The position numbers and the translations under genes were made by a program. The notes beneath the pieces were generated by a model that made no database searches, was not told the DNA's origin, and saw only the letters and a program-made list of their open reading frames with translations. From Phycisphaerae bacterium (GTDB lineage Bacteria; Planctomycetota; Phycisphaerae; UBA1845), in NCBI GenBank assembly GCA_029260215.1, contig JAJDDQ010000014.1, positions 1 to 64,000 on the forward strand: a stretch of 64,000 nucleotides of DNA. The letters run 5' to 3'. Of this stretch, positions 28,139-33,571 are shown piece after piece (the stretch's first letter is position 1; the number at the start of each line of letters is the position of its first letter).

Positions 28139-28729
28139 TTAGCGGTTTTTGTCCGTTCCGAACCAGTTTATTTCGAGGCACCTTCGCAAATGCATCCTCG
28201 CCCGATGGAGTTGCGTCCACAGATTCGTCGGCGTCAGGTGCAAAATCTTACAAACTTCCTCGCCGGAAATGCCCTCGATCTCGCGAAGCGTGAAGGCGTC
28301 GGCCATCGTTTCAGGCAGATTTTGCAGACAATTGAACAAAACGCCCCGAAATTCGTCGCTTTCCAAGGCACGATCGACGTCGGGCCACGATTTCGGACCG
28401 TCGCGCCAGAGACCGTTTCCGGCAAACGTGTCCGATTCCAGGGCATCGATGTCGGATAATGTCTGCGTAGCTCGCTCCCGTCCAGCTTGACGATAATGGT
28501 CGGCGATTTTGTGCTTGAGGATACCGATGAGCCAGGTTCGCTCCGCCGATCGGCCTGAGAAGGACTGCGGGTTACGCAAGGCGGCGGCGAAGGTCTCCTG
28601 CAGGAGTTCCTCCGCCCGTTCGGGCAAACGGACACGCAGCAGCGCGAACCGGTACATAGCCTCCGCATGCTGATCGACCCACTCGGCTGGGTTGGCTGCC
28701 TTGTTCCTGTCACTGGCGGATTCAGCCAT
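28139..28729 (-). CDS. ECF-family RNA polymerase sigma factor
   Basis: The protein (about 197 residues from the ATG at 28729) has sigma region 2 (MYRFALLRVRLPERAEELLQ, then SAERTWLIGILKHKIADHYR). After a linker comes region 4, with a helix-turn-helix (LPETMADAFTLREIEGISGE, EVCKILHLTPTNLWTQLHRAR). Regions 1 and 3 are absent, as in ECF factors. The frame is open to 28819, but the extra 30 residues are not sigma-like. It is followed by a zinc-finger anti-sigma-like gene and is divergent from the probable selenoprotein gene at 28867, with 137 bases between. Confidence 0.92.
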   Translation of the reverse strand: MAESASDRNKAANPAEWVDQHAEAMYRFALLRVRLPERAEELLQETFAAALRNPQSFSGRSAERTWLIGILKHKIADHYRQAGRERATQTLSDIDALESDTFAGNGLWRDGPKSWPDVDRALESDEFRGVLFNCLQNLPETMADAFTLREIEGISGEEVCKILHLTPTNLWTQLHRARMHLRRCLEINWFGTDKNR

Positions 28730-28866
28730 TTCAGTTCCGAAATCTCCATCGAGGATCGTCGCCGTTTGCCGTCGATTTGGCAATTCGGGCGTACGCTGTC
28801 TACAATCATATTCGACCAACGGGCCTGGTGAACGATTTCAATATTTCAAATGGAGCGAAGCACAAT
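28730..28866. promoter_or_regulatory. Divergent promoter region, ECF sigma / redoxin
   Basis: This 137-base spacer must carry promoters for both genes. An ECF-type promoter shared by the pair would be expected if the sigma factor is autoregulated, but I cannot identify its elements by eye. A GGAGCG ribosome binding site lies at 28853-28858, before the ATG at 28867. Confidence 0.4.
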
Positions 28867-29796
28867 ATGCTGCACGCGTTGCTGATTCCCCTGGTGTTTG
28901 CCGCCGGCGACGGATCGAACGACGCGCTTAAACTCAAAGCGCGCATCACGTCGTCGAAACTCGTCGTCGGAAAAACGTACGAAATTGACCTGATCTGCAA
29001 ATTCGACAGAGGCTGGTCCGGCGATGAAGCCGGGCTGCCGCATCCGATTCTGCACGTCAACGTACCGCCGTCCGCCGAGCTTGCGGGCGACGTTCTGGCC
29101 ACGCAAAAGGAATTGTCCAAGAACGAATTTCTCCACGCTCCTTACGAACGGCAGTTGGAGGACAAGCGCACGAAGATCGAGTTTACACTGTTGAGCGAGC
29201 CGCATGCGGACGAAGTCTTCAGCCTGACCGTGATCGCCTACGCGCAAGACAAAGCTGGCGAAAACTATTTCCTTCGCGAGCGCGTCGAAGTGCCGCTTCA
29301 ACCTCGCGGGAAGTCGCGAAAAGTCGCAGCGGTGCCCTCCAACTTCGGCGGTGACTTCGATTATCTTCAGATCGGCGACAAAGCCGTCGAATTCGACTTG
29401 CCCAAAGCGGACGGTTCCCACGTGAAGCTGGCGGACTACATCGGCAAGAAAAACATCGTCGTCACCACCTATCGGGCTTTTTGGTGACCGTTCTGTGCAA
29501 CGCAACTGGTTCAGTTGCTTGAAAACTACGACGAATTCACGTCGCGCGACACTGTGGTCGTAGCCGTCGCACAGGAGGACTCCGATCTCAAGAAGCACGG
29601 CCAAATGATCCGCAAGCTCCCGTCAGTGCCACCCTATGACATCGTCGCGGACATCGGTTGCGAGCAGACCAGCCGCTACCACCGAACGCACGCTTACCTG
29701 ATCGACAAGCAGGGCATCGTTCGGCAGGTGTTCCCGATGCTGATCCATCATCGCGGGTCGTGGGACGCGGTACTTCGCGAAATCGACAGGCTGTAA
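28867..29796 (+). CDS. Probable selenoprotein redoxin (DsbD-N-like + AhpC/TSA-like), in-frame UGA as Sec
   Basis: The frame reads through one internal TGA at 29485-29487 and stops at 29796, about 309 residues. After a short signal-like start (MLHALLIPLVFAAGDG), a beta-rich domain (about 20-155) resembles the DsbD N-terminal domain. The redoxin domain follows (about 170-309: GDKAVEFDLPKADGSHVKLADYI). At the active site the sequence reads YRAFW-UGA-PFC-ATQLVQL, where related proteins have W-C-P-x-C, so the UGA stands for the first, peroxidatic-type cysteine. The downstream part (KHGQMIRKLPSVPPYDIVAD and onward) keeps normal redoxin coding. Expected role: reduction of peroxides or disulfides. 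It depends on SelA/B/C/D encoded elsewhere. The alternative is a nonsense mutation. Confidence 0.82.
29485..29518 (+). promoter_or_regulatory. UGA and candidate bacterial SECIS hairpin
   Basis: After the UGA (29485-29487), a perfect 7-bp stem GCAACTG/CAGTTGC (29502-29508 with 29512-29518) is closed by the 3-base loop GTT. The loop's first base is G, with 21 bases between the UGA and that G. Known bacterial SECIS elements need a small apical loop with a G in its first two positions, about 16-37 bases after the UGA; all criteria are met. The hairpin lies within coding sequence (ATQLVQLL). Confidence 0.75.
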
Positions 29797-32119: not shown

Positions 32120-32236
32120 GCAGGATGAGAATGGGGTTCGCCTCCGCCCGCCTACTTGACATCGGCTTGTCCTTGCACAACAAAGGCTGTTTCAATCTTC
32201 GAGCAATACAATCGACGTGAAACGGGGTTTGGCATC

Positions 32237-33571
32237 ATGATGGACATCAAGCAAGTACGTGAAAATCCGGATCGCTTCAAAGAGGCGTCCCGGCTGAAGA
32301 ACGTTCCGTGCGACATCGACAAGTTGATCGAGGTCGATGCGCGAAGACGGGCCGTCCAGCAGGAATTGGAGAGTTTGCGTACGCAAAGTCGCGAGGGCGG
32401 GCAGCAGTTGGCGCTGTGTCGCAACCCCAAATCCGAGTGGTACAAACGAGCCGTCCAAAACGGCAAGACGCCCGAAGAGATCAAAGTCGAAGCCGACCGC
32501 CTGCAAAAAGAATTGAACGACGTCAAAGCCCGGTCCAAACCGCTCGAAGACGAGGACCGCACCGTCAACGAGGAATTCGCCGCCGCGATGCTCACCGTTC
32601 CTCAGCCAGCCGGGCCTGACGTGCCGGTGGGTAGTGACGATACCGAGAACGTCGAGCTGCGCCGTGTCGGCGAGATTCGTCAATTCGATTTCAAGCCGAA
32701 GGATCATGTCACGCTCGGGCAGGAGCTGGATATCATCGACATCGAGCGCGGTGTGCGGTTGGCCGGCTCGCGGAATTATGTTCTCAAGGGCGATGGGGCT
32801 TTGCTGCATCAAGCTGTACTTCGTCTCGCGCAGGACATGATGGTTCAGCGCGGCTTTGTACCCATGACGGTTCCGGTGCTTGTGCGCGAGGAGGTCATGA
32901 CCGGCACGGGTTACTTCCCCGGCGGGCGGGAGCAGGCTTACCTTTGCGAGCGGGACGAGAAGGCCCTCGTCGGAACCGCCGAGGTGCCGCTGACCGCGTA
33001 CCACGCCGGAGAGATTCTCGACGAGTCGCGCCTGCCGCTGAAGTATTGTGCGCAGAGCACCTGTTTTCGCAGAGAGGCCGGCGCTGCGGGCAAAGACACT
33101 GCGGGCCTTTATCGCATTCACCTTTTCGACAAAGTCGAGCAGGTCATCATCTGTCGCAACGACGAAGAGCTGAGCATCAAGTTGCACGCGGAGATTCTGC
33201 AAAACGCGGAAGATGTGGTGGCTGCGCTCGAATTGCCTTACCGCGTGGTCAACGTCTGCACCGGCGACCTCGGCCAAGGACAGGTGCAAAAATTCGACAT
33301 TGAAACGTGGATGCCCTCGCGAGACAGCTACGGCGAAACCCACTCCGCCAGCCGTTTCTACGAATTCCAATCCCGTCGCCTCATGCTCCGCTACAAAGAC
33401 GCGCAAAAGAAAACGCGGTTCTGCCACACGCTGAACAACACAGTCGTCGCCAGCCCGCGCATTCTCATCCCGCTCCTCGAACTGCACCAAAACGCCGACG
33501 GCACCATCAACATTCCACAGGCGCTTCGCCCCTACATGAACAACAAAGAGCGCATCGAACCCAGGCCATAA
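32237..33571 (+). CDS. serS: Seryl-tRNA synthetase
   Basis: The enzyme charges tRNA-Ser (and Sec tRNA where present). The N-terminal coiled-coil arm (about 1-105, MMDIKQVRENPDRFKEASRL then long charged helices) is followed by the class II core: motif 2 CFRREAGAAGKDTAGLYRIH and motif 3 NNTVVASPRILIPLLELHQN. At 445 residues it is slightly longer than usual (about 425). Two ATGs stand side by side at 32237 and 32240; either could start. In selenoprotein-making bacteria this enzyme also supplies seryl-tRNA(Sec), relevant to the gene at 28867. Confidence 0.96.
   Translation: MMDIKQVRENPDRFKEASRLKNVPCDIDKLIEVDARRRAVQQELESLRTQSREGGQQLALCRNPKSEWYKRAVQNGKTPEEIKVEADRLQKELNDVKARSKPLEDEDRTVNEEFAAAMLTVPQPAGPDVPVGSDDTENVELRRVGEIRQFDFKPKDHVTLGQELDIIDIERGVRLAGSRNYVLKGDGALLHQAVLRLAQDMMVQRGFVPMTVPVLVREEVMTGTGYFPGGREQAYLCERDEKALVGTAEVPLTAYHAGEILDESRLPLKYCAQSTCFRREAGAAGKDTAGLYRIHLFDKVEQVIICRNDEELSIKLHAEILQNAEDVVAALELPYRVVNVCTGDLGQGQVQKFDIETWMPSRDSYGETHSASRFYEFQSRRLMLRYKDAQKKTRFCHTLNNTVVASPRILIPLLELHQNADGTINIPQALRPYMNNKERIEPRP

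What the first reader, a model, noticed from the sequence alone, without database searches (positions are those of the whole stretch)
28867..29796. Probable selenoprotein redoxin: UGA at the catalytic cysteine
A single in-frame TGA (29485-29487) splits a gene that otherwise reads on without damage for about 100 codons. In the sequence, the UGA falls in YRAFW-U-PFC, where related redoxins have W-C-P-x-C. A 7-bp hairpin with a G-led loop begins 14 bases after the UGA, within the accepted SECIS range. By established knowledge of bacterial selenocysteine insertion this is the expected arrangement. A DsbD-N-like domain ahead of the redoxin part makes the domain order uncommon.
Basis: partly seen in the sequence, partly recalled or inferred. 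Interest (0 to 1): 0.88.

Follow-up and report, generated by a model that had tools for sequence, protein, structure and literature searches.

The report
Two-domain selenocysteine redoxin of Planctomycetota
A bacterial gene that looks broken by a stop codon in fact encodes a whole redox protein whose catalytic position is selenocysteine; all 33 copies found carry the same codon and the same RNA hairpin, so it is a real selenoprotein of a known general kind, in a subfamily that no curated model passes.

Summary
The gene at 28867-29796 (+) has one in-frame TGA (29485-29487), followed by 102 constrained codons. Of 33 full-length homologues in 32 Planctomycetota genomes (own included), every one has TGA at this codon and none has Cys; single-domain redoxins have Cys there (W-C-P-F-C). 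A 7-bp hairpin starts 14 nt after the UGA. Its outer six pairs form in 33/33 genes, with compensatory changes at four of seven pairs, against a mean of 6.3 of 31 expected from synonymous codon choice. The genome holds selB, selA and selD over their curated cut-offs; selD also has an in-frame TGA, at the known Sec site. TGA also serves as an ordinary stop.

One gap: tRNA-Sec was not found in this genome's assembly. It is present in 40 of 51 genomes of the same family and in 11 of 12 gene-bearing relatives, so an assembly gap is the likeliest reason.

The 'DsbD-N-like' reading is not supported: the front domain is a predicted Ig-like beta-sandwich without conserved cysteine.

Best reading: an (inferred) exported UxxC thiol/selenol-disulfide oxidoreductase of the known Prx-like/redoxin UxxC kind, in a two-domain, apparently Sec-only subfamily.

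The parts
28867..29796 (+). Complete selenoprotein gene, 309 residues with Sec at 207 (stop TAA 29794-29796)
   Evidence: Read-through translation; 59% identical full-length homologue with TGA at the same codon; 33/33 homologues
28867..28911 (+). Short hydrophobic leader MLHALLIPLVFAAGD, probable export signal (inference)
   Evidence: Sequence; hydrophobic N-termini recur in homologues; no signal-peptide predictor was available
28918..29310 (+). N-terminal beta-sandwich (Ig-like) domain without conserved Cys
   Evidence: AlphaFold2 model of the domain alone, pLDDT 80.9, all beta; fold search; Cys count
29371..29733 (+). AhpC-TSA / redoxin (thioredoxin-fold) domain, residues 169-289
   Evidence: PF00578 E 1.5e-18 over cut-off; PF08534 E 2.6e-11 over cut-off; 31/31 members of A3 match both
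29485..29487 (+). UGA read as selenocysteine, first position of a U-x-x-C motif (Cys at 29494-29496)
   Evidence: TGA in 33/33 genes, Cys in single-domain relatives; the +3 Cys is kept in 30/31 aligned proteins
29502..29518 (+). SECIS-type stem-loop: 7 bp, GUU apical loop (or 6 bp with GGUUC)
   Evidence: Outer six pairs in 33/33 genes; 4 of 7 pairs covary, 0/500 shuffles reach the covariation score; synonymous resampling control; fits the published bSECIS constraints
29488..29793 (+). 102 codons after the UGA, under purifying selection
   Evidence: dN/dS in pairwise comparisons; 68% protein identity to L111 over this part

Best explanation
The gene encodes a selenoprotein: a Prx-like/redoxin-family thiol(selenol)-disulfide oxidoreductase with a U-x-x-C active site, carried behind an N-terminal beta-sandwich domain. 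SHOWN by comparison: the UGA is conserved, it lies where relatives have the first Cys of C-x-x-C, and an RNA hairpin right behind it is under selection of its own. SHOWN by gene content: the genome has SelA, SelB and a SelD that itself carries an in-frame UGA at the known Sec site. INFERRED: SelB with Sec-tRNA(Sec) binds the hairpin and inserts Sec at this UGA; the protein is exported; Sec207 is the attacking residue and Cys210 the resolving one, so it reduces or exchanges disulfides (or acts as a Trx-like peroxidase) outside the cytoplasm; the front domain binds a partner or substrate rather than passing electrons, as it has no conserved Cys.
For: UGA at the same codon in 33/33 full-length homologues in 32 genomes, none with Cys. 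Cys at this place in single-domain redoxins, WCPFC/WCPYC. Hairpin: outer six pairs 33/33, 98.2% of cells paired versus at most 36% when slid, 13 double-change cells against 2.5 shuffled, 31/31 versus mean 6.3 (max 15) under synonymous resampling. Hairpin geometry meets the bSECIS model as summarised in PMC13188914: the loop's first base is 22 nt after the UGA, within 16-37, G first in the loop, MFE -10.0. selA, selB, selD over curated cut-offs; selD has its own UGA in a UxxK motif, the Sec motif listed for SelD. TGA is also the stop of 15 of 43 large ORFs in the window, so it is not globally reassigned. Constraint after the UGA. tRNA-Sec in 40/51 genomes of the same family and with anticodon TCA in 11 of 12 gene-bearing relatives.
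Against: No tRNA-Sec was found in this genome's 88-contig, 97.1% complete assembly (best hits are tRNA-Ser and tRNA-Leu). In the family, gene presence and tRNA-Sec presence are not associated (21/25 versus 19/26, p = 0.50), because most genomes have Sec anyway. No protein or activity data. The hairpin of this single sequence is not unusual by energy (z -1.55). Export and enzymatic role are inferred only.
Confidence: 0.95

Rival explanations
1. The TGA is a true stop; the gene is a decaying pseudogene or a sequencing error.
For: A single stop inside an otherwise open frame is what a nonsense mutation looks like; tRNA-Sec is missing from this assembly.
Against: The same TGA is in 33/33 homologues from 32 genome assemblies; purifying selection continues after it; the downstream hairpin is conserved with covariation.
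Confidence: 0.01
2. UGA is read as another amino acid (Trp or Cys) by a reassigned code or programmed read-through, without selenium.
For: tRNA-Sec not seen in the own assembly; conserved read-through would also preserve the downstream codons.
Against: TGA is an ordinary stop for 15 of 43 large ORFs here and ends several of the homologous genes themselves; selA, selB and selD present; a SECIS-type hairpin at the right place; Cys replaces it in single-domain relatives, as expected for Sec.
Confidence: 0.02
3. It is a selenoprotein, but in this particular species Sec decoding is being lost (selC gone) and only a truncated protein is made.
For: No tRNA-Sec in a 97.1% complete assembly although 44 other tRNA matches are found, the same number as in G433, which has tRNA-Sec.
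Against: selA, selB and selD are intact and the part of this gene behind the UGA is still constrained; a single short gene is easily lost in an 88-contig assembly; three other gene-bearing genomes without a hit are only 63-83% complete.
Confidence: 0.06
4. It acts mainly as a peroxidase (peroxiredoxin) rather than a disulfide oxidoreductase.
For: PF00578 AhpC-TSA is the best Pfam match; the best PDB sequence relative is a Bcp-type peroxiredoxin, 3drn.
Against: In the Prx-type proteins of the same alignment the catalytic Cys sits at position 210 with T or S at 207 (L048, L049, L050); here 207 is Sec and 210 Cys, the Trx/ResA-like U/C-x-x-C pattern.
Confidence: 0.25

Closest known systems
Prx-like thiol:disulfide oxidoreductase selenoproteins (PF00578, UxxC/UxxU) and 'Redoxin family protein' (PF08534, UxxC), as listed in PMC13188914
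   Same: Same Pfam domains, same UxxC motif, Sec in place of the first Cys
   Different: Those list entries name only the redoxin domain; here there is a conserved extra N-terminal beta-sandwich domain and no Cys form was found. Whether the listed example HEU0032618.1 is of this subfamily was not tested (the sequence is not held).
NCBIfam NF040769 SelL-related redox protein
   Same: Partial match to the region ahead of and through the active site in 31/31 members
   Different: 27.9 bits against a cut-off of 120 for the window protein
ResA / TlpA-type thiol-disulfide oxidoreductases (NF002854)
   Same: Redoxin fold, CxxC-type motif, extracytoplasmic by analogy
   Different: 39.2 bits against a cut-off of 170; Sec, and an additional front domain
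DsbD N-terminal domain (nDsbD; e.g. PDB 6dps)
   Same: Ig-like beta-sandwich; nDsbD appears among the Foldseek matches (prob 0.98, E 2.9e-3, TM 0.33)
   Different: Many unrelated Ig-like proteins match as well or better; no conserved cysteines; no Pfam hit

Membership tests
Bacterial selenoproteins (SelB/SECIS-dependent) | In-frame UGA conserved at a catalytic position, with Cys in other homologues | tested here: met
   33/33 UGA; Cys in single-domain redoxins
Bacterial selenoproteins (SelB/SECIS-dependent) | bSECIS stem-loop just downstream: 4-16 bp upper stem, 3-9 nt loop with G in the first two places, 16-37 nt spacing, MFE <= -7.5 | tested here: met
   7 bp, GUU loop, loop's first base 22 nt after the UGA, MFE -10.0 for the 45-nt stretch (constraints)
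Bacterial selenoproteins (SelB/SECIS-dependent) | selA, selB, selD in the same genome | tested here: met
Bacterial selenoproteins (SelB/SECIS-dependent) | tRNA-Sec (selC) in the same genome | tested here: inconclusive
   Not in this 97.1% complete draft; present in 40 of 51 genomes of the family
Bacterial selenoproteins (SelB/SECIS-dependent) | Se incorporation shown biochemically | not testable with these tools
   Needs 75Se labelling or mass spectrometry
Prx-like/redoxin UxxC selenoproteins | PF00578 or PF08534 domain over cut-off with UxxC at the active site | tested here: met
   67.4 bits (cut-off 26) and 44 bits (cut-off 26.6); UxxC in 30 of 31 aligned
DsbD N-terminal domain (DsbD_N) | Sequence match to a DsbD_N profile | tested here: inconclusive
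   No such Pfam match among the families listed for 31 members up to E = 1; filters can miss distant relatives
DsbD N-terminal domain (DsbD_N) | Conserved pair of catalytic cysteines | tested here: not met
   Most members have no Cys in this domain; C44 of the window protein is not conserved
DsbD N-terminal domain (DsbD_N) | Ig-like beta-sandwich fold | tested here: inconclusive
   Predicted beta-sandwich; nDsbD is one of many matches

The most novel reading that the evidence does not exclude
A phylum-wide two-domain redoxin subfamily in which the active-site Sec has never been replaced by Cys, so that selenium is chemically indispensable for its task outside the cytoplasm.
Probability: 0.35. 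Interest if true: 0.6.

Novelty: new member of a known kind. Interest (0 to 1): 0.45.

Why it matters
Standard annotation splits this gene into a truncated protein and a fragment in every genome that has it, so a conserved redox enzyme is easily missed across Planctomycetota. It adds a well-supported, apparently Sec-only subfamily to the selenoproteome, and its 33-member hairpin alignment with compensatory changes is a useful test set for bacterial SECIS prediction.

Tried and rejected
Pseudogene, frameshift or sequencing error: rejected by 33/33 conservation. Global TGA reassignment: rejected, TGA ends 15 of 43 large window ORFs. Search for tRNA-Sec in the own genome by Rfam model, by pattern and by the closest relative's gene: nothing; the best DNA hit, on C54, is a tRNA-Thr. 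The GH3-like gene beside tRNA-Sec in the closest relative (L073) was located in the own genome (C36), but there it is followed by other genes and no tRNA, so synteny did not help. Co-occurrence of gene and tRNA-Sec within the family is uninformative (p = 0.50). AlphaFold on the whole protein with two sequences was poor (pLDDT 52.7), so the redoxin half was judged by sequence only. The fold search does not single out a family for the front domain. Conserved gene neighbourhood: none found, except the ECF sigma factor gene next door in one relative (L112), within short flanks.

Full report
OBSERVATION. The + strand carries ATG at 28867 and TAA at 29794-29796 with a single in-frame TGA at 29485-29487; read through, this gives 309 residues with U at 207 in YRAFW-U-PFCATQLVQL. 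Pfam finds AhpC-TSA (PF00578, 67.4 bits, cut-off 26) and Redoxin (PF08534, 44 bits, cut-off 26.6) at residues 169-289. No NCBIfam model comes near its cut-off.

CONSERVATION OF THE UGA. A genome collection scan found a Phycisphaerae MAG homologue (L017), 59% identical over the whole length, with TGA at the same codon. Search of 392 Planctomycetota genomes with the protein, and again with a 31-member profile, gave full-length matches in 8 genomes (own included), all interrupted by TGA at that codon. In the own taxonomic family 25 of 51 genomes (own included) have the gene, each with one TGA. In all, 33 genes in 32 genomes have U at this place and none has Cys. The Cys-bearing relatives are single-domain redoxins with WCPFC or similar (L029, L033-L039). 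In proteins of the ordinary peroxiredoxin type (L048-L050) the place is T or S and the Cys is three residues later. On a tree of the redoxin domain the Sec rows need only two label changes (quick tree, many weak branches).

THE HAIRPIN. GCAACUG-GUU-CAGUUGC starts 14 nt after the UGA (29502-29518); the loop's first base is 22 nt after it. Its outer six pairs form in all 33 genes. On the 31-row alignment A1, 98.2% of pair cells are standard pairs against at most 36% in slid controls; four of seven pairs have changes on both sides; no shuffle of 500 reaches the observed covariation; RNAalifold finds the same structure unaided. Because the stretch is also coding, I resampled synonymous codons: the outer stem forms in a mean of 6.3 and at most 15 of 31 sequences, against 31 observed. 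So the RNA structure is selected beyond the protein. It meets the published constraints for bacterial SECIS elements (PMC13188914). For the window sequence alone the folding energy is not exceptional (z -1.55); the case rests on comparison.

CODING AFTER THE UGA. Pairwise estimates against nine homologues give nonsynonymous well below synonymous change after the TGA, as constrained as or more than before it in most pairs. TGA is an ordinary stop in the window (15 of 43 large ORFs) and ends several of the homologous genes, so it is not globally reassigned.

MACHINERY. selB (C37:21028-22908, 375 bits, cut-off 242) overlaps selA (559 bits, cut-off 268), and selD (369 bits, cut-off 125) lies on C34. 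selD itself has an in-frame TGA in CAG-U-AGK, the UxxK motif listed for Sec-containing SelD: independent evidence that this genome decodes Sec. tRNA-Sec is the gap. The Rfam model finds it in 40 of 51 family genomes at 61-71 bits and in 11 of 12 gene-bearing relatives, all with anticodon TCA, but in the own assembly only tRNA-Ser/-Leu type hits up to 45 bits. A pattern search and a search with the closest relative's gene also found nothing. With 88 contigs and 97.1% completeness, an assembly gap is likelier than loss, since selA, selB and selD and the downstream half of this gene are intact; but this is not shown.

DOMAINS AND ROLE. The protein starts with a short hydrophobic leader (probable export; inference). 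Residues 18-148 form a predicted Ig-like beta-sandwich (pLDDT 80.9). nDsbD is among the fold matches, but many unrelated Ig-like proteins match as well or better, no member has a Pfam hit to it there and there is no conserved Cys. The 'DsbD-N-like' label is therefore not supported, though a common fold is not excluded. The redoxin domain has U207 invariant and C210 in 30 of 31 aligned proteins. Inferred mechanism: SelB delivers Sec-tRNA to the UGA by way of the hairpin; Sec207 is the nucleophile and Cys210 resolves, in a disulfide-exchange or peroxide-reducing reaction outside the cytoplasm; the front domain probably binds the partner.

COMPARISON. The general kind, Prx-like or redoxin UxxC selenoproteins, is known (PMC13188914, PMC2398784). 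What this adds is a two-domain subfamily, apparently Sec-only in the genomes searched, for which no NCBIfam cut-off was reached by the window protein. Only Planctomycetota were searched in depth, so Cys forms elsewhere are not excluded.

Noticed in passing
G000:C34:22067 (L018, TGA at 1531): selD of the same genome has an in-frame TGA in SCAG-U-AGKL (UxxK motif), with a strong stem-loop downstream: SelD is probably itself a selenoprotein.
   Followed up: partly
L030, L031, L032, L041 (other Planctomycetota): A sister group of redoxins with U in WW-U-L-(Y/F)-C, in longer proteins with a different front part; probably another uncurated selenoprotein group.
   Followed up: partly
L105 (5377-6270, -) and L026 (1438-2307, -): Divergent members keep UGA and hairpin but read UPGS and UGRC: in L105 the resolving Cys is replaced by Ser (UxxS).
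   Followed up: partly
L046 (G188:C68): Peroxiredoxin with FTPG-U-TREM, i.e. a TxxU peroxiredoxin selenoprotein of the known type.
   Followed up: no
G278:C9:557087-557181 and 554652-555548: In this relative the tRNA-Sec gene lies about 1.5 kb upstream of the selenoprotein gene, on the same strand.
   Followed up: partly
window 32156-33571 (+): Seryl-tRNA synthetase gene (the enzyme that charges tRNA-Sec with serine) 2.4 kb downstream; probably coincidental.
   Followed up: no
window 28139-28819 (-): Divergently oriented ECF-type sigma factor gene next to the selenoprotein gene; a 54% identical gene is also adjacent in relative L112.
   Followed up: partly
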